Positions 6,361 to 20,096 of a DNA stretch of 20,096 nucleotides are shown piece by piece; the stretch's first letter is position 1, and the number at the start of each line of letters is the position of its first letter. Source of the stretch: a virus. The position numbers and the translations under genes were made by a program. The stretch covers positions 1 to 20,096 of the IMG/VR virus record IMGVR_UViG_3300049893_000101; one strand, given 5' to 3'. Below the pieces are notes generated by a model. That model saw only the letters and a program-made list of their open reading frames with translations. It was not told where the DNA came from and did not search any database.

Positions 6361-6399
6361 CAAATAAGAAAGCCTAAGAACCTTGTAGGGTCCTTAGAC
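6361..6399 (-). terminator. Rho-independent terminator after the 82-aa gene
   Basis: On the minus strand the arms 6389-6399 and 6372-6382 pair over 11 bases with G-U wobbles around a 6-base loop, and a U-rich run (TTTCTTATTT) follows at 6362-6371. The loop and closing bases read CCTTGTAGGG on the plus strand, a signature shared by all five terminators in this region. It separates the micro-gene array from the replication operon. Confidence 0.75.
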
Positions 6400-6411
6400 T
6401 TCTGAGCCTGC

Positions 6412-6660
6412 TTACTTGGCGACGTACAGGATCTTGATCTGATCGATGCCAGAGGCGATCTCATCGATAGAGCTGTTCACGTAGTCCTCAACCGGCTTCT
6501 CGAGCAGGCTCGCCACCATGAACGCTCCGATGAAGATGACAACCTTCTGATAAGGCTTCTTCACGGGGGTGTTCGCGGTGATGAGTGCTGAGATAGTGGC
6601 CGAGGTACAGTACGAGGCAGTCTTCGATGCGATCAACTTGGTGATCTCGAGCTTGGTCAT
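6412..6660 (-). CDS. Small membrane protein (82 aa)
   Basis: The start ATG at 6660 follows AAGGAG and a promoter repeat (6679-6711) that leaves an untranslated leader of about 20 bases. The protein begins with a lysine- and threonine-rich helix (KLIASKTASYCTSATISALI), has one hydrophobic segment at about residues 40-54 (KVVIFIGAFMVASLL) and an acidic tail VEDYVNSSIDEIASGID. Its general layout resembles short phage proteins I recall from gut phages, with no known function. It is an independent unit: own promoter, one gene, own terminator. A role at the membrane (for example superinfection exclusion or lysis tuning) is possible but nothing in the sequence shows it. Confidence 0.8.
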   Translation of the reverse strand: MTKLEITKLIASKTASYCTSATISALITANTPVKKPYQKVVIFIGAFMVASLLEKPVEDYVNSSIDEIASGIDQIKILYVAK

Positions 6661-6678
6661 GGTACTTCTCCTTGGGTA

Positions 6679-6711
6679 GGGGTCTCATTATAGGCCCTGT
6701 TTTATACGCGA
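6679..6711 (-). promoter_or_regulatory. Promoter repeat P6
   Basis: On the minus strand: TCGCGT, then TATAAAACAGGGCC, then a perfect -10 TATAAT (6687-6692), then GAGACCC. The ATG of the 82-aa gene lies 26 bases past the -10 box. No TTGACA-like -35 box exists at 17 bases; the GCG block occupies that region. A 37-base stretch (6676-6712) is identical to 9458-9494 at P3. Confidence 0.78.
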
Positions 6712-6717
6712 GGGTGG

Positions 6718-6732
6718 GGCACCTTTTGTGCC
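6718..6732 (-). other. Small hairpin in the 6713-6829 spacer
   Basis: A 5-bp perfect stem (GGCAC / GTGCC) with a 5-base loop sits upstream of P6 and downstream of the chaperone-like gene. It lacks a U-run, so it is a weak terminator candidate at best. The rest of the 117-base spacer holds nothing I recognise. Confidence 0.25.
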
Positions 6733-6829
6733 GGGGGACACACACGGCGGTCGTTTAAGAGCTAGCATCCGGAATAAGGCGAGACCCAGGGGCGGAGTAC
6801 CCCAAGAACCTTTGCTGCTCCCCATCTCC

Positions 6830-7345
6830 TCACATCCCGTTGGACTCGCGCCAGGCGGCGAACTCCTCCGGAGTCATCGTAGAGAAGTCCGGCATCTGCG
6901 CCGCGGCCTCGATGTTTTCGATGTTCTCCTGCGAAACAGGAACCTCGGTCTCGACAGGAGGCAGCGGAAGCTGACCCTGAACCTGCTCGGCAAGACCCTT
7001 CGGGATAACGCCGTTCACGAACTCAGCACCAGCCTGAGCGTTCGTAGCCAGCTCCATGAAGAGCTCGCTAAAGGCGGGGCTTCCCTCGAACTCCTCTCGG
7101 ATCTCCTGGTTCTTGACAAAGCTCTGCCCGCGACGCTTACCGACGGACAGGAGGAGGATGCGCTTGAAACCAGCAATGATCTCCTTACCATTGCCGGCCT
7201 TGATGATCTCCTGCATGGTCTCCGAGAAGCCACCCTCCTCCGAGACCTCGAGCTCCAGAAGCTCAGACTTGGTCAGGTTGAAGTAGAAGTCCTCGGTGAC
7301 GGTCTCGCCGTCGAAGTTTTCGAACGTGACGGTCTTCTTGTACAT
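6830..7345 (-). CDS. Putative tail assembly chaperone (171 aa)
   Basis: I chose the start MYKKTVTF at 7345, which follows AGGAGAAGGA; the ATG ten codons earlier has no ribosome site. The N-terminus pattern YKKTVTFENFDGETVTEDFYFNLTK, a LELE...GG helix, a KRILLLSVG segment and a SELFMELATNAQAGAEFVNG segment fit a family that I recall as tail-assembly chaperone-like in siphoviruses of Gram-positive hosts. The C-terminal 45 residues are Pro/Glu-rich and end with MTPEEFAAWRE. Such genes normally sit just before the tape measure gene; here it lies about 6.6 kb downstream of that gene, past the holin, in the micro-gene array. It has no promoter repeat of its own and follows a terminator (7366-7401). 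I see no frameshifted second product. The function is a family-recall inference. Confidence 0.82.
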   Translation of the reverse strand: MYKKTVTFENFDGETVTEDFYFNLTKSELLELEVSEEGGFSETMQEIIKAGNGKEIIAGFKRILLLSVGKRRGQSFVKNQEIREEFEGSPAFSELFMELATNAQAGAEFVNGVIPKGLAEQVQGQLPLPPVETEVPVSQENIENIEAAAQMPDFSTMTPEEFAAWRESNGM

Positions 7346-7365
7346 GGTTGGTCCTTCTCCTAGTC

Positions 7366-7401
7366 GAAAAGACAAATCCCAAACCCTTGTGGGGTCTGGG
7401 A
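7366..7401 (-). terminator. Rho-independent terminator after the 66-aa gene
   Basis: On the minus strand TCCCAGACCC pairs with GGGTTTGGGA (7392-7401 with 7377-7386) around a 5-base CACAA loop, followed by the U-rich run TTTGTCTTTT. The plus-strand core CCTTGTGGGG is the shared terminator signature. It lies between the 66-aa gene and the chaperone-like gene. Confidence 0.75.
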
Positions 7402-7408
7402 CTGAGGT

Positions 7409-7609
7409 TCACTTCTTGGAGGAAGTGGTCTCTGCGGGGGCGAGCTCCGTGTCGGTCTCCTCGGTCTCGTTCGAGTTGAACTTGAGGGCGGCCAGCACGA
7501 CGGCGACAGTAGTAACTGCCACGGCGGTGATGACGACCTTCTTGTTCTTCCAGAGCGGGACGCGGGCGGAGGTCTCGACGACGGTGGTCTCGACGGTCTG
7601 CTCGGACAT
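7409..7609 (-). CDS. Small single-span membrane protein (66 aa)
   Basis: I chose the start MSEQTVETT at 7609, which has AAGGAG upstream. An in-frame ATG at 7642 overlaps the -10 box of promoter P5 and would not be in the transcript. Layout: a Thr/Val/Glu-rich N-terminus, basic WKNKK, one membrane segment (about residues 25-42, VVITAVAVTTVAVVLAAL), and an acidic, Thr/Glu-rich tail ending in SSKK. The K(K/I)-V-(V/L)-(I/V)-T-A-V start of the membrane segment resembles the segments of the 52- and 59-aa proteins further right, so these may be distant relatives or simply similar by composition. It forms its own promoter-gene-terminator unit. Function unknown. Confidence 0.8.
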   Translation of the reverse strand: MSEQTVETTVVETSARVPLWKNKKVVITAVAVTTVAVVLAALKFNSNETEETDTELAPAETTSSKK

Positions 7610-7633
7610 TTGGGTCTCCTTAGTAGAGTGAGT

Positions 7634-7665
7634 GGATCTCATTACAGGCCTTGTTTTTCACGCGA
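7634..7665 (-). promoter_or_regulatory. Promoter repeat P5
   Basis: Minus strand: TTCGCGTGAAAAACAAGGCC followed by a -10 box TGTAAT (7641-7646) and GAGATCC. It lies 31 bases before the ATG of the 66-aa gene. The -10 box departs from the family at its second base. Confidence 0.72.
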
Positions 7666-7706
7666 ATGGCCACTCGCCCTGAAGGAGAGGAAGCCAGGAT
7701 ATCGCC

Positions 7707-8489
7707 TTAGTATTGGCGAAAGTAGTTCACAAGCGGCAGCTCGTCATACTCGATGGACAGGCAAGGCCGTCCGTCCTCGGAAATAACGGTGCTGAACCTC
7801 ACGCTCAGAGGTCGGTCACTGTTCCAACCGACGGTCTCAGAGAATGCGGTACCTGACAGACCGATCAGATCGTAGAACTCTGTCAGGCTTGCGTAGGATC
7901 CAATCGACATCAAGATCTTGTGGTTGATGTCATTCTCAGCCTTCTTGATTGACTCCATGCTGGACTCGAAATATCGGCCCGTCAGAGAGTCATAGCAGAG
8001 AACATCGCCCTTGCCCGTGATGACGACCTCTCGAGTGGAGACTGGATTGTCGTCCACACGCTTCTGCGCCACTTCGTCACGAAGGGCTCGATGCTTCTTC
8101 TCGCCGAGCTTCTCTTCGACCTTCTCGCGGTACTCGAAGAACGCCTTCTCGGACAGCGAATATGCGGCCGCAACGGCTGCAGCACGCCGCGTTCCAATCC
8201 GATTCGCTCCGATGATGGCAGCTACTGAGAGAGTACCAACTCCGATCGCAGGAACGAAGTCCACCCAGTATCGCTTAACGATCTCGGTAGTGGTCGGGTT
8301 CTCCGGAGGGAGACCCTCGAGGAGCGGCTCGTAGTGACCTGCATTGAGGTCAAGGCCCATTCTGTAGGCCGCGCGGCCGGCAAGATATGCAGTAACGACC
8401 GTACCCGCTGCGCCGATCCCAGTCAGGATCGTAGGGCTGTTGTCGACTGCGTACTTTTCGGCCTGCTTGAGAATATCAAGCAACGTCAT
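7707..8489 (-). CDS. DUF6353-like membrane protein, copy B (260 aa)
   Basis: The start ATG at 8489 follows AAAGGAG and overlaps the end of the previous gene by 14 bases. Two membrane segments are visible: about residues 18-40 (SPTILTGIGAAGTVVTAYLAG) and about 77-97 (VPAIGVGTLSVAAIIGAN). Then RRAAAVAAAYSLSEKAFFEYREKV, an EKLGEKKHRALRDEVA helix, and a C-terminal domain with VVITGKGDVLCYDSLTGRYF, LTEFYDLIGL and VGWNSD...RPCLSIEYDE. This fits closely what I recall as DUF6353, a phage family of unknown function. It closes a five-gene coupled unit that starts at promoter P4; I see no clear terminator behind it. The window holds a second, more diverged copy at 4814-5695, in the replication operon. 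It probably acts in the host membrane. Confidence 0.86.
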   Translation of the reverse strand: MTLLDILKQAEKYAVDNSPTILTGIGAAGTVVTAYLAGRAAYRMGLDLNAGHYEPLLEGLPPENPTTTEIVKRYWVDFVPAIGVGTLSVAAIIGANRIGTRRAAAVAAAYSLSEKAFFEYREKVEEKLGEKKHRALRDEVAQKRVDDNPVSTREVVITGKGDVLCYDSLTGRYFESSMESIKKAENDINHKILMSIGSYASLTEFYDLIGLSGTAFSETVGWNSDRPLSVRFSTVISEDGRPCLSIEYDELPLVNYFRQY

Positions 8490-8763
8490 TCCGCCACTCC
8501 TTTACGGTCTTGAAGATGCGATCGTCTCGATCCATCTGGATGATGCGAGCATGGAAGCGAGCCATGCGCTCTTCGCGTTCGACGTCTACCTTCTCTTCGG
8601 TCTGCTTGAGCACTTGCAGACACAGGTCACGGGTCTCGATCATGACCTTGAGGTCTCGCTTCTCCAAGTACTCCTTGTACTTGACCCAGAGAATTGCGAC
8701 GAGTACGGGAGTCCCAAGAACAAGGACTACCCAGAACAGTTCGAGCGCTGCGCCTTGAATCAT
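8476..8763 (-). CDS. Small membrane protein with charged helix (95 aa)
   Basis: One N-terminal membrane segment (about residues 7-27, LELFWVVLVLGTPVLVAILW) is followed by a long charged helix (KEYLEKRDLKVMIETRD...EEKVDVEREERMARFHARII) that could form a coiled coil. Start ATG 8763 overlaps the stop of the zinc-ribbon gene by four bases (ATGA), a classical coupling arrangement, and the 3' end overlaps the DUF6353-like gene by 14 bases. No family recognised. The layout, a short outside or membrane part with a cytoplasmic helix, and the fixed neighbours suggest it may work with the membrane protein encoded next to it; this is inference. Confidence 0.8.
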   Translation of the reverse strand: MIQGAALELFWVVLVLGTPVLVAILWVKYKEYLEKRDLKVMIETRDLCLQVLKQTEEKVDVEREERMARFHARIIQMDRDDRIFKTVKEWRNDVA

Positions 8764-8918
8764 GACTTCTTCGCCTTTCGTTCAGCAGCCCTACGCTCTG
8801 CACGGCGCTGCTTGCTTCCAATGGATGGGTTGTACTGGCACCAACCGCAAGGAGTCTTGTCTACGGTTTTTGCCTCTCTCGGATGGCCGCAGTTTTTACA
8901 CATGACCATGTCGCGCAT
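8760..8918 (-). CDS. Zinc-ribbon micro-protein (52 aa)
   Basis: Too short for common length limits but well supported. The ATG at 8918 shares one base with the stop of the upstream reading frame (TGATG) and the stop overlaps the next start by four bases. Residues 7-27 form a CKNC...CGWC pattern (Cys7, Cys10, Cys24, Cys27), a typical four-cysteine zinc ribbon. The C-terminal half (about 36-52) is strongly basic: KQRRAERRAAERKAKKS, which could bind nucleic acid. It may be a small DNA- or RNA-binding regulator made together with the membrane proteins of the P4 unit. What it binds cannot be read from the sequence. Confidence 0.78.
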   Translation of the reverse strand: MRDMVMCKNCGHPREAKTVDKTPCGWCQYNPSIGSKQRRAERRAAERKAKKS

Positions 8919-9007
8919 CAGTCCGTCCTATCCCAGTCGTTGAAGAAATAGGACCATTCACCGTTCTTCCAAACAGTGAACCCATGCTCGTCGTGGATGA
9001 TGAGCAT
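8918..9007 (-). CDS. Micro-ORF, 29 aa, coupled
   Basis: A 29-residue frame, MLIIHDEHGFTVWKNGEWSY and nine more residues, with start ATG sharing one base with the stop of the 38-aa gene and stop sharing one base with the start of the zinc-ribbon gene. The two TGATG junctions fit an intact coupled chain, which is the main argument that it is translated. Content is aromatic and acidic with no membrane segment. It could instead be a non-functional bridge that only carries ribosomes to the zinc-ribbon gene, since I see no separate ribosome site for that gene. Confidence 0.5.
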   Translation of the reverse strand: MLIIHDEHGFTVWKNGEWSYFFNDWDRTD

Positions 9008-9123
9008 CAGTATTGCCTCCGCATCTCGCGGACGAAGATCCAGATCAACCAGAGACCTGCGGTGAGGCAGATCATGATCAGGTCGAACAGGAAGTTGCCG
9101 AAGCCGTAGCGTCGAGTGGACAT
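9007..9123 (-). CDS. Micro membrane protein (38 aa)
   Basis: First gene of the P4 unit. ATG at 9123 follows a strong GGAGG eight bases upstream, after an untranslated leader of about 85 bases. Layout: MSTRRYGFGN, then a membrane segment (about residues 11-30, FLFDLIMICLTAGLWLIWIF), then VREMRRQY. Basic residues flank both ends of the span. I recall near-identical short proteins, with the same STRRYGFGNF start and WLIW...VREMRR end, in many actinobacterial and other Gram-positive phages, where they are usually unannotated or 'hypothetical'. Function unknown. Confidence 0.8.
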   Translation of the reverse strand: MSTRRYGFGNFLFDLIMICLTAGLWLIWIFVREMRRQY

Positions 9124-9207
9124 GCGAGCCTCCAATATCGGGTGGGTTGGGCAAAATATATGAGATGTGATTCTCCAATGGGGGAGGGTCGTGAGCCATT
9201 ACTGACT

Positions 9208-9239
9208 CCATCTCATTATAGTCCATGTTTTTCACGCGA
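9208..9239 (-). promoter_or_regulatory. Promoter repeat P4
   Basis: Minus strand: TTCGCGTGAAAAACATGGAC then -10 TATAAT (9215-9220) and GAGAT. It drives the five-gene coupled unit. Unlike the other copies it is 91 bases away from the first start codon, leaving a longer leader (9124-9208) in which I see no clear structure. Confidence 0.75.
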
Positions 9240-9273
9240 ATTCAAAACCTAAAGCCCTTGTGGGGGCCTTAGG
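9238..9273 (-). terminator. Rho-independent terminator after the 52-aa gene
   Basis: CCTAAGGCCC (9264-9273) pairs with GGGCTTTAGG (9248-9257) with one G-U, then TTTTG. The T-run ends within a few bases of promoter P4, so one unit stops almost where the next begins. It is nearly identical to the terminator at 9838-9863. Confidence 0.8.
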
Positions 9274-9283
9274 CTGTTTGATG

Positions 9284-9442
9284 CTACTTGGTCGCAGTGA
9301 GGACGATGACGTCCCGGAGGAACTGGCGGTGGGCTTCGACGCGCGCCTGGGCGAATACAGCTGTTGTTGCGGTAACAACGACTGCGGTCACCAGGATCGC
9401 ACGCTCGTGCTCCAGATACCAGTCCTTGAGGGTCTTGGTCAT
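9284..9442 (-). CDS. Micro membrane protein (52 aa), paralogue of the 59-aa gene
   Basis: ATG at 9442 follows AAAGGAG; stop TAG at 9284-9286. Layout: MTKTLKDWYLEHER, then a membrane segment (about residues 16-31, ILVTAVVVTATTAVF), then AQARVEAHRQFLRD and a short hydrophobic end. It aligns with the neighbouring 59-aa protein without long gaps: Y-x3-ER-x-ILVT-x2-VV-x-T-x2-AV, then H-x2-FL. The pair therefore looks like a tandem duplication that has diverged. It has its own promoter P3 and its own terminator. Function unknown; the positive N-terminal side suggests that the N-terminus stays inside the cell. Confidence 0.78.
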   Translation of the reverse strand: MTKTLKDWYLEHERAILVTAVVVTATTAVFAQARVEAHRQFLRDVIVLTATK

Positions 9443-9461
9443 GGTGTCTCCTTTGTAGTAG

Positions 9462-9493
9462 GGGTCTCATTATAGGCCCTGTTTTATACGCGA
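9462..9493 (-). promoter_or_regulatory. Promoter repeat P3
   Basis: Minus strand: CTCGCGTATAAAACAGGGCC then -10 TATAAT (9469-9474) and GAGACCCC; 26 bases before the ATG of the 52-aa gene. Positions 9458-9494 are identical to 6676-6712 (P6) over 37 bases. Confidence 0.8.
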
Positions 9494-9495
9494 GA

Positions 9496-9527
9496 CAAAA
9501 ACCATACTCCTTGTGGGGAATATGGTT
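9496..9527 (-). terminator. Rho-independent terminator after the 59-aa gene
   Basis: AACCATATTCC (minus strand, 9517-9527) pairs with GGAGTATGGTT (9500-9510) with one wobble, followed by TTTTTGTCTCG. The loop region carries the shared CCTTGTGGGG signature, although the stem sequence is different from the other terminators. The T-run touches promoter P3. Confidence 0.78.
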
Positions 9528-9537
9528 TGTGAGGGGA

Positions 9538-9717
9538 TTACTCCTCATCGAGGGCGTAGAACTCTTCGTAGAGGTCGTGCTCCTTGAGGAAGTCGTTGTG
9601 CTGCTTGATGCCAGTCCGCATCAGGACAGCGGCGGTCGTTGCGACGACGGCTGTGGTGACGAGGATCTTGCGCTCATTGCGCACGTAGAACTTCTTAATG
9701 GAGGTCAGGGCCTTCAT
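9538..9717 (-). CDS. Micro membrane protein (59 aa), paralogue of the 52-aa gene
   Basis: ATG at 9717 follows GAAAGGA; stop TAA at 9538-9540. Layout: MKALTSIKKFYVRNERK, a membrane segment (about residues 18-32, ILVTTAVVATTAAVL), then MRTGIKQHNDFLKE and an acidic, aromatic tail ending EEFYALDEE. The basic N-terminal side suggests an N-in orientation with the acidic tail outside. It shares Y-x3-ER-x-ILVT and H-x2-FL with the 52-aa neighbour. Single-gene unit between promoter P2 and its own terminator. No known function. Confidence 0.78.
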   Translation of the reverse strand: MKALTSIKKFYVRNERKILVTTAVVATTAAVLMRTGIKQHNDFLKEHDLYEEFYALDEE

Positions 9718-9740
9718 GGTAGGTTCCTTTCGTGGGGGTA

Positions 9741-9772
9741 GGGTCTCACTATAAGCCCTGTTTTGTACGCGA
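9741..9772 (-). promoter_or_regulatory. Promoter repeat P2
   Basis: Minus strand: ATCGCGTACAAAACAGGGCT then -10 TATAGT (9748-9753) and GAGACCC; 30 bases before the ATG of the 59-aa gene. The 65-base spacer between it and the terminator at 9838 contains a CCCCCCGGGG run but nothing I recognise. Confidence 0.75.
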
Positions 9773-9830
9773 TACCCCGTATGTCCGTTTTGCCCTTTGT
9801 GTCCAGAAATATGACCCCCCGGGGAAAATT

Positions 9831-9863
9831 GCCAAAACCTAAAGCCCTTGTAGGGGCCTTAGG
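9831..9863 (-). terminator. Rho-independent terminator after the 93-aa gene
   Basis: CCTAAGGCCC (9854-9863) pairs with GGGCTTTAGG (9838-9847) with one G-U wobble, then TTTTGGC. It differs from the 9248-9273 copy at a single base in the loop, over about 33 bases. Confidence 0.78.
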
Positions 9864-9888
9864 CTTGGGTTCCTTTCAGGTCTCGGTG

Positions 9889-10170
9889 TTACCGAAGCTT
9901 CTGGACGAAAGTCATCGCTGTCTTTGGGATGATCGTGGTGCGCTCGTGCTGCAGAACGAGGAGGATCCCGATCAGGTTTGCGCCGATCAGCGCCCAGGTG
10001 TCTCGACTCACGCCCGTCTTAGTCTCGTTGACTTTGAGGGAGTGGAGCTTTGACAGCCTGTCTAGCTGGTCGTTGTAAATCTCTGACTGGGGGTCTTCCT
10101 TGCTCATAAGCAAGAGGATCCGATCGATCTCAGAGTTCAGCGAACTTGCGGGGGTCTGCTTCTGAAACAT
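9889..10170 (-). CDS. Small membrane protein with C-terminal span (93 aa)
   Basis: I chose MFQKQTPASS at 10170, preceded by AAAGGAG; the in-frame ATG at 10194 lies inside promoter P1. Unlike its neighbours, the cytoplasmic part comes first: residues 1-60 are polar and helical (SEIDRILLLMSKEDPQSEIYNDQLDRLSKL shows the helix pattern), followed by GVSRDTWALIGANLIGILLVL (membrane segment about 62-77), then a short basic end with PKTAMTFVQKLR. I recall very similar proteins (a DP.S..Y......L.KL helix, then SRDT...GANL.GILL) from uncultured gut phages, function unknown. First single-gene unit of the array, directly after the holin. Confidence 0.8.
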   Translation of the reverse strand: MFQKQTPASSLNSEIDRILLLMSKEDPQSEIYNDQLDRLSKLHSLKVNETKTGVSRDTWALIGANLIGILLVLQHERTTIIPKTAMTFVQKLR

Positions 10171-10186: not shown

Positions 10187-10217
10187 GGTCTCACTATAAG
10201 CCTTGTATATAGCGCGA
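10187..10217 (-). promoter_or_regulatory. Promoter repeat P1
   Basis: Minus strand: GTCGCGCTATATACAAGGCT then -10 TATAGT (10193-10198) and GAGACCC; 22 bases before the ATG of the 93-aa gene. It is the most diverged copy in the middle block. It starts only a few bases after the holin stop codon with no terminator between, so late transcripts may run through. Confidence 0.7.
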
Positions 10218-19531: not shown

Positions 19532-20096
19532 TTAGACTGTGCTGAAACGGATTCCATCAACTGAAATCCAGCCGTTATTGCCCTGTCTGACCATTACGAT
19601 TCCATCATTTTGAACGTCGATTCGTCCATTGACTGAACCTGGGCCTGTATTGGCGTGAGTGTGCGCAGTACCAGTGCTTGCTGCGCCAGTGTTCCATGAA
19701 GCCAAAGCAGTTGTATTTCCGGAAAAGATCAGGATATTGACCGGCCTGTAACCAACGGGTAGCGTGAAAGCAGCCACGGTCAGAGTTCCCGACTTCATGA
19801 GACCTCTAAGAACTACTTCGTCTCCCATTTTGCGGTACTGAACGTTTTGGTACGGCGTACCATAATTAACCCAACCGTTTTGGAATACAACGTCTGTCCA
19901 TGGCGTGACTGCGTAGTCAATTCGACTCCATGCGGTCCAAGAACCGGCACCAAGCATAGCTCTCTGATAGACTACAGGCGTGCCATTCGTGAGGCTAGTT
20001 GCTCTTTGAACCATGTAGGTCGGCGTTGCTCCGGAGAAGTTTGTGTGCATCAGAACTTCTACATACCACCAGTTGGCATCCGGCGCATTTGTCAGG
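19532..20096 (-). CDS. Tail fibre-like protein, 5' end outside window
   Basis: The frame is open to the right edge, so the internal ATG at 20050 is unlikely to be the start; the visible upstream residues TNAPDANWWYVEVL continue the same fold. This first part (NAPDANWWYVEVLMHTNFSG, then YMVQRATSLTNGTPVVYQRAM) resembles knob-type modules of pyocin and phage fibres. The second part (WTDVVFQNGWVNYG, VQYRKMGDEVVLRGL, FTLPVGYRP) and the C-terminus with GRIDVQNDGIVMV and WISVDGIRF look like a fibre tip. Such a gene is expected downstream of the tail tip genes, not before the gp10-like gene. It might also be the C-terminal host-binding extension of a tail tube or capsid protein; the missing 5' part would decide. 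Confidence 0.8.
   Translation of the reverse strand, partial: LTNAPDANWWYVEVLMHTNFSGATPTYMVQRATSLTNGTPVVYQRAMLGAGSWTAWSRIDYAVTPWTDVVFQNGWVNYGTPYQNVQYRKMGDEVVLRGLMKSGTLTVAAFTLPVGYRPVNILIFSGNTTALASWNTGAASTGTAHTHANTGPGSVNGRIDVQNDGIVMVRQGNNGWISVDGIRFSTV

What the first reader, a model, noticed from the sequence alone, without database searches (positions are those of the whole stretch)
6412..10170. Cassette array of micro-genes, each with its own promoter and terminator
In about 3.8 kb the pattern promoter, tiny membrane gene, terminator is repeated (93, 59, 52, 66 and 82 aa), next to a coupled five-gene unit. Phage genes are normally in long operons; single-gene units of this kind resemble 'morons' but are here in a tandem series under one shared control signal. 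It may be an accessory set of host-membrane or defence-related effectors.
Basis: partly seen in the sequence, partly recalled or inferred. Interest (0 to 1): 0.8.

Follow-up and report, generated by a model that had tools for sequence, protein, structure and literature searches.

The report
Phage micro-gene cassettes with private promoter
A bacterial virus carries a row of tiny genes, each with the same 29-letter start signal and its own stop signal; that start signal recurs in viruses of several bacterial groups that also carry their own one-piece RNA polymerase, so it is probably the polymerase's private promoter.

Summary
Five micro-genes (93, 59, 52, 66, 82 aa) each have a near-identical 29-nt promoter-like element about 20-28 nt before the start codon and a strong hairpin after the stop. 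A sixth copy drives a coupled five-gene unit. The element, TCGC-N7-ACA-N5-TATARTGAGA, has rigid spacing and lies on one strand. It recurs at the same place in phages of Streptomyces, Gordonia, Rhodococcus, Arthrobacter, Microbacterium and other hosts, with a variant in Lactococcus phage 1706. It is at chance level in bacterial genomes. Phages with it carry a roughly 900-aa protein, mostly annotated only as 'helix-turn-helix'. Its DFDGD motif and predicted fold show a QDE-1-like single-chain RNA polymerase with HTH-like ends. Six control phages lack both. Best explanation: the array is a regulon of one-gene transcription units read by the phage's own polymerase. Whole units come and go between close relatives, with breakpoints in the repeated terminator-promoter segments, so 'cassette array' is apt. 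Not shown: that the polymerase itself recognises the element (host sigma-A RNAP plus a phage factor is the main rival), any transcription, or the micro-genes' functions. The window is a fragment without the polymerase gene; its closest relative found carries it.

The parts
10189..10217 (-). Promoter-like element 1 (TCGCGCTATATACAAGGCTTATAGTGAGA), before the 93 aa gene
9889..10170 (-). Micro-gene, 93 aa, PHROG 5818 (unknown function)
   Evidence: homologues at the same place in Gordonia and Streptomyces phages
9834..9865 (-). Terminator hairpin, -19.4 kcal/mol
9744..9772 (-). Promoter-like element 2, before the 59 aa gene
9538..9717 (-). Micro-gene, 59 aa, PHROG 12653; homologues in Streptomyces phages
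9496..9530 (-). Terminator hairpin, -15.3 kcal/mol
9465..9493 (-). Promoter-like element 3, before the 52 aa gene
9284..9442 (-). Micro-gene, 52 aa, possible paralogue of the 59 aa product (weak PHROG 12653 match)
   Evidence: E 0.012
9243..9275 (-). Terminator hairpin, -17.9 kcal/mol
9211..9239 (-). Promoter-like element 4, before the coupled five-gene unit
7707..9123 (-). Coupled unit: 38 aa (9123-9007), 29 aa (9007-8918), 52 aa (8918-8760), 95 aa (8763-8476), 260 aa DUF6353 (8489-7707)
7637..7665 (-). Promoter-like element 5 (TGTAAT form), before the 66 aa gene
7409..7609 (-). Micro-gene, 66 aa, one hydrophobic segment
7375..7403 (-). Terminator hairpin, 12 pairs
6830..7345 (-). Tail assembly chaperone family gene (PF23803), no promoter element of its own
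6683..6711 (-). Promoter-like element 6, before the 82 aa gene
6412..6660 (-). Micro-gene, 82 aa, PHROG 7539 (unknown function)
6369..6402 (-). Terminator hairpin, -16.8 kcal/mol

Best explanation
The region is a cassette array of short transcription units. Each unit is the phage lineage's private 29-bp promoter, one micro-gene (once a five-gene operon) and an intrinsic terminator. The promoter is most likely read by the phage-encoded single-chain, two-barrel (QDE-1/YonO-type) RNA polymerase, which would contact TCGC (near -31) and ACA (near -20) through its HTH-bearing N- and C-terminal domains and open the DNA at TATAAT-GAGA without a host sigma factor. Every unit would then be switched on together but expressed separately. 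Because terminator-promoter segments repeat, homologous recombination adds or removes whole units. Shown by computation: anatomy, rigid motif, lineage-wide conservation, co-occurrence with the polymerase, predicted polymerase fold, unit gain and loss. Inferred: promoter activity, recognition by this polymerase, timing, function of the micro-genes.
For: Placement: 42 of 44 sites are noncoding in stretches that are 6-9% noncoding, median 21 nt before a CDS. Co-occurrence: 41 of 50 records have a full or near-full polymerase gene and one a weak fragment; 8 of the 9 without it were read and end before the polymerase locus. Reverse test: 25 of 28 polymerase-selected contigs have the motif, all on one strand, reversed-pattern control 0. 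Six control phages have neither. Five further complete phages have both. Variants occur in Lactococcus 1706 and Bifidobacterium BitterVaud1 with diverged polymerases. Bacterial genomes: 28 stretches in 257 Gb, where about 60 are expected by chance on uniform base composition. Polymerase: invariant DFDGD; HTH / sigma-region-4-like matches near both ends; model core 224-756 matches QDE-1 (Z 15.2, rmsd 4.5, 384 residues) and phage RNAPs P74 gp62 (13.4) and P32 gp64 (13.2). Unit gain and loss.
Against: Co-occurrence is confounded by shared descent: these phages also share DUF6353, primase-polymerase and structural genes, and I found no natural separation of polymerase from backbone. The element contains a perfect sigma-A -10 hexamer and a GAGA discriminator, which a host RNAP could use. 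No transcription, binding or start-site data. The window contig lacks the polymerase gene. YonO is not a detectable sequence relative, and the SPbeta region upstream of yonK lacks the motif. One truncated prophage scaffold has 13 loose matches and no polymerase.
Confidence: 0.62

Rival explanations
1. Host sigma-A RNA polymerase reads the elements. TATAAT and GAGA are its -10 and discriminator, and a phage activator bound at TCGC/ACA replaces the -35 element, as T4 MotA does at middle promoters (recalled, not tested here).
For: The -10 core is TATAAT in most sites; T at the last -10 position is 99.1% conserved; no -35 hexamer at the usual place in most copies.
Against: Spacing between TCGC, ACA and the -10 never varies. 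The second base of the -10 hexamer is the least conserved of its near-fixed positions (90.7%), while the third is 97.4%, unlike the usual sigma-A pattern. The same element serves phages of many host genera while bacterial genomes show no excess. The phages carry their own polymerase.
Confidence: 0.25
2. The elements are operators or stoperators of a phage repressor that silences the units, with promoter strength supplied by the embedded -10 only.
For: Repeated conserved intergenic motifs are known in actinophages; 18-bp, 13-bp and 30-bp motifs are reported in Microbacterium clusters EC, EF and EI, functions unknown (PMC7302621).
Against: The motif is asymmetric, lies on the coding strand only, sits at a fixed short distance from start codons and includes a full -10.
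Confidence: 0.08
3. A series of independently acquired morons, each with its own ordinary host promoter.
For: Single-gene units with promoter and terminator; units are gained and lost.
Against: All units share one long lineage-specific element, not assorted host promoters, and sit at one fixed genomic place across phages.
Confidence: 0.05

Closest known systems
P23-45 / P74-26 phage two-barrel RNA polymerases and their promoters (PMC10770324)
   Same: Phage-encoded RNAP of the same fold class (P74 gp62 Z 13.4, P32 gp64 Z 13.2); in P23-45 relatives a promoter motif is present or absent together with its polymerase.
   Different: P23-45 promoters are AT-rich or GC-rich motifs mapped by RNA sequencing; here the element is a 29-bp TCGC/ACA/TATAAT/GAGA motif in a large actinophage group, unmapped experimentally, driving micro-gene cassettes.
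SPbeta YonO RNA polymerase (PMC5467207)
   Same: Single-chain DNA-dependent RNAP class with a catalytic aspartate motif; phage-encoded.
   Different: No significant sequence relation found; YonO transcribes late genes as one operon and its promoter sequence was left undetermined; its upstream region lacks this motif.
SAS/ESAS and other conserved intergenic motifs of actinophages (PMC7302621)
   Same: Repeated, oriented intergenic motifs upstream of small genes.
   Different: Those described are 13-30 bp, cluster-specific, and were not reported with a linked polymerase.
Morons (lambdoid phages)
   Same: Single genes with their own promoter and terminator, variable between relatives.
   Different: Here they are in tandem and share one lineage-specific promoter element.

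Membership tests
QDE-1/YonO-type two-barrel single-chain RNA polymerase (the linked gene in relatives) | Catalytic DxDxD / DbDGD metal-binding motif | tested here: met
   LSGADFDGDT; D521, D523, G524, D525 invariant in 53 sequences and in 1706
QDE-1/YonO-type two-barrel single-chain RNA polymerase (the linked gene in relatives) | Two-barrel RNAP core fold | tested here: met
   Predicted model (pLDDT 78.8), residues 224-756 to QDE-1 Z 15.2; Foldseek E 2e-9
QDE-1/YonO-type two-barrel single-chain RNA polymerase (the linked gene in relatives) | Sequence homology to YonO itself | tested here: inconclusive
   hhalign probability 7%, 20 aligned columns
QDE-1/YonO-type two-barrel single-chain RNA polymerase (the linked gene in relatives) | DNA-dependent RNA synthesis | not testable with these tools
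   needs purified protein
Host sigma-A promoter | -10 TATAAT-like hexamer | tested here: met
Host sigma-A promoter | -35 TTGACA-like hexamer 16-18 nt upstream | tested here: not met
   only one of six window copies flagged; T-rich but no conserved hexamer upstream of TCGC
Moron | Single gene with own promoter and terminator | tested here: met
   five units in window by sequence; activity not tested
Moron | Presence or absence between close relatives | tested here: met
   Rima, OlympicHelado and DrGrey, relatives of the window phage
Moron | Independent, host-driven expression in a lysogen | not testable with these tools
   no transcript data; shared lineage-specific element argues against independence

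The most novel reading that the evidence does not exclude
A whole group of phages, at least 250 sequenced records with hosts in two bacterial phyla, carries a self-sufficient transcription system. A single-chain two-barrel RNA polymerase with built-in HTH promoter-binding domains, possibly injected with the virion, reads a private 29-bp promoter repeated up to about 33 times before micro-gene cassettes used early in host takeover. It would be a first defined promoter for this polymerase branch.
Probability: 0.4. Interest if true: 0.87.

Novelty: new variant of a known kind. Interest (0 to 1): 0.78.

Why it matters
It gives a concrete candidate promoter sequence for a branch of phage two-barrel RNA polymerases; for the related-type enzyme YonO the authors wrote that the promoter, and whether other factors are needed, remain to be found (PMC5467207). 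It suggests that many 'helix-turn-helix protein' annotations in about 250 phage records hide an RNA polymerase. The motif also marks a variable set of tiny phage genes of unknown function in Streptomyces, Gordonia, Rhodococcus, Arthrobacter and other phages, and could become an expression part for actinobacteria.

Tried and rejected
A generic promoter scan was not above shuffles. My first collection scan had the spacing off by one base and found 2 stretches; I kept it as a control. Rfam: no match. PDB sequence search with the polymerase: no match, so a structure model was needed. YonO as a sequence relative and the SPbeta region upstream of yonK as a motif carrier: no. Divergent relatives: L010's locus has two exact TCGC/ACA spacings with an altered -10; L011's polymerase is 43% identical and no motif was found. 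The human-faecal scaffold MT835485 (13 loose matches, no polymerase) lacks hits to Rima terminase and tape measure and contains isopropylmalate synthase and threonine synthase genes, so it looks like a truncated prophage and is not decisive. Literature: none of the seven held papers with the string TATAATGAGA and the word phage is, by title, about such a phage promoter; Summer 2011 on ReqiPepy6 is not held and no held paper matched 'phage 1706' with its polymerase, so a prior report cannot be excluded. Resemblance of TATAGTGAGA to the T7 promoter start was noticed from memory; the presence of a T7-type polymerase was not searched for.

Full report
What is there. The window is a whole 20,096-base IMG/VR contig from a tailed phage; nearest named relatives are Gordonia, Arthrobacter, Curtobacterium and Microbacterium phages. 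The genes considered here are all on the minus strand: tail genes, holin (PF16938), the micro-gene island (about 10.2 to 6.4 kb), a second DUF6353-like gene and others, then a primase/polymerase. In the island the order is element, 93 aa gene, hairpin; element, 59 aa, hairpin; element, 52 aa, hairpin; element, five coupled genes; element, 66 aa, hairpin; a 171 aa tail assembly chaperone without an element; element, 82 aa, hairpin. The finding is confirmed.

The element. Aligning the six copies gives TCGCG-N6-ACA-N5-T(A/G)TARTGAGA followed in most copies by a C-rich stretch and the ribosome-binding site. Fetched relatives show it in tandem, on one strand only. In fetched loci the spacing is absolute: 318 sites against 0 at every other spacing tried. 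Positions left free in the pattern also carry information: purine at 5, A/T at 8-11, G16, C18, C at 30-33. Leave-one-out conservation is 100% at C2 and G3, 99.8% at C13 and 99.1% at T25, but 90.7% at the second -10 base. In four annotated phages 42 of 44 sites fall in noncoding DNA, which is 6-9% of those stretches, a median of 21 nt before a gene.

Not a bacterial promoter class. The pattern occurs in 28 stretches in 257 Gb of bacterial and archaeal genomes; about 60 would be expected by chance for uniform composition (my arithmetic). The few multi-copy hits there (L140, L142) were not followed up and may be viral.

The linked polymerase. Streptomyces phage Rima gp86, Rhodococcus phage Pepy6 gp106 and Lactococcus phage 1706 gp75 are homologous (56% and 42% identity to Rima), with an invariant DFDGD motif, HTH matches near the N- and C-termini including sigma-70 region 4, and, in Pepy6 and 1706, a sub-threshold Pfam RdRP match. 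An AlphaFold2 model from 53 homologues (pLDDT 78.8, pTM 0.62) matches QDE-1 over residues 224-756 (Z 15.2, rmsd 4.5 over 384 residues), then plant RDR2 and the phage polymerases P74 gp62 and P32 gp64. So it is, by motif and predicted fold, a two-barrel single-chain RNA polymerase; activity is untested. It is found in 250 phage records (Arthrobacter 95, Gordonia 55, Streptomyces 54, Lactococcus 13 and others); most rows shown are annotated only as helix-turn-helix protein.

Motif and polymerase go together. Of 50 records, 41 have a full or near-full polymerase gene and one (G042) only a weak fragment; some of the 50 had been chosen through other genes rather than the motif. I read 8 of the 9 lacking it, all but the 17.6-kb G041: each is a collinear piece of the same genome type that ends before the polymerase locus. 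Going the other way, 25 of 28 contigs chosen by polymerase have the motif, with none on the other strand and none for the reversed pattern; the three without it are 18-25 kb fragments. Six phages without the polymerase (phiC31, R4, DocB7, GTE2, ArV2, TP901-1; hosts of the same genera) have no motif. Five more complete phages picked by DUF6353 (Bilo, LibertyBell, Camille, Serenabean, Paella) have both, although Serenabean only at 3 mismatches. Where the polymerase diverges the motif shifts: 1706 has (C/T/G)CACA-N2-TTTT-ACA-N5-TATAGT-AGA in about ten copies, BitterVaud1 TCGCGA-N5-ACA-N5-TATAATGAA. The window's closest relative (L008, 66% identity in the second DUF6353 gene) carries the polymerase and 14 motif copies. 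The weakness of this argument is shared descent: the same phages share other core genes, so co-occurrence does not by itself name the reader of the motif.

Cassette behaviour. Rima and OlympicHelado are 96-99% identical on either side of one Rima unit (gp38) that OlympicHelado lacks; the flanking alignments overlap by about 107 bases of terminator-promoter repeat. DrGrey has an extra unit (gp32) and lacks Rima's gp35 unit, again with repeat overlaps of about 90 and 44 bases. Units are thus gained and lost whole, most simply by recombination between the repeats.

Possible virion delivery. The polymerase starts with (D/E)xxLxHYGIxxxSGRYPWGSG. Four Rima and eight Pepy6 proteins of the packaging/head region carry a similar HYGVKGMKWG tag near their N-termini in most cases, and the Pepy6 record calls 1706 gp75 a structural protein. 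This hints that the polymerase is packaged and would make the island an early regulon; it is only a lead. No held paper mentions the GMKWG string with phage.

What is known. For YonO the promoter sequence and need for cofactors were stated as open (PMC5467207). For P23-45, two phage polymerases have their own promoters and the AT-rich motif follows its polymerase among relatives (PMC10770324), the same logic as here. Actinophage papers describe other repeated intergenic motifs without a linked polymerase (PMC7302621). I found no report of this element in the papers held, but the original papers on Pepy6 and 1706 could not be read.

Verdict. Array, motif and unit turnover are solid. That the motif is a promoter is very likely. 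That the phage polymerase reads it is the best-supported explanation (0.62), with host RNAP plus a phage factor as main rival (0.25). Function of the micro-proteins is unknown; the 66 and 52 aa products have clear hydrophobic segments, the other three are borderline.

Noticed in passing
L171, L169 (Rima and ReqiPepy6 packaging/head region); L172:14980; L170:14074: Series of proteins with an HYGVKGMKWG tag, mostly near the N-terminus; the RNA polymerase begins with a related HYG...YPWGSG sequence. Possible virion-targeting tag.
   Followed up: partly
Arthrobacter phage Paella MT771347 37.6-44.7 kb and 51.1-51.7 kb: 33 copies of the promoter in the genome (3 mismatches allowed), about one per 300 bases over 7 kb, plus two short fragments related to the polymerase N-terminal region. 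IMG/VR record G042 has a similar fragment inside its island.
   Followed up: no
window 6830-7345: A tail assembly chaperone family gene (PF23803) sits inside the micro-gene island, about 6.6 kb from the tape measure gene instead of beside it.
   Followed up: no
window 19532-20095: A fibre-like protein lies just upstream of the short gene before the tape measure gene, an unusual place.
   Followed up: no
MT835485 (L287-L290): Gut prophage scaffold with 13 motif-like sites, a serine recombinase and adjoining host leuA/thrC-type genes; suggests temperate members of the group.
   Followed up: partly
L140 (Acidobacteria MAG contig QHXL01000552), L142 (Eubacterium ramulus): Bacterial-genome contigs with 5 and 2 motif copies, perhaps misbinned virus or prophage.
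   Followed up: no
ReqiPepy6 GU580941 73549-76260; IMG/VR records G016, G030, G034: The search reports one stop codon inside the polymerase match in these four records; in Pepy6 the TAA is at the 3' edge of the annotated gene, the others were not examined.
   Followed up: no
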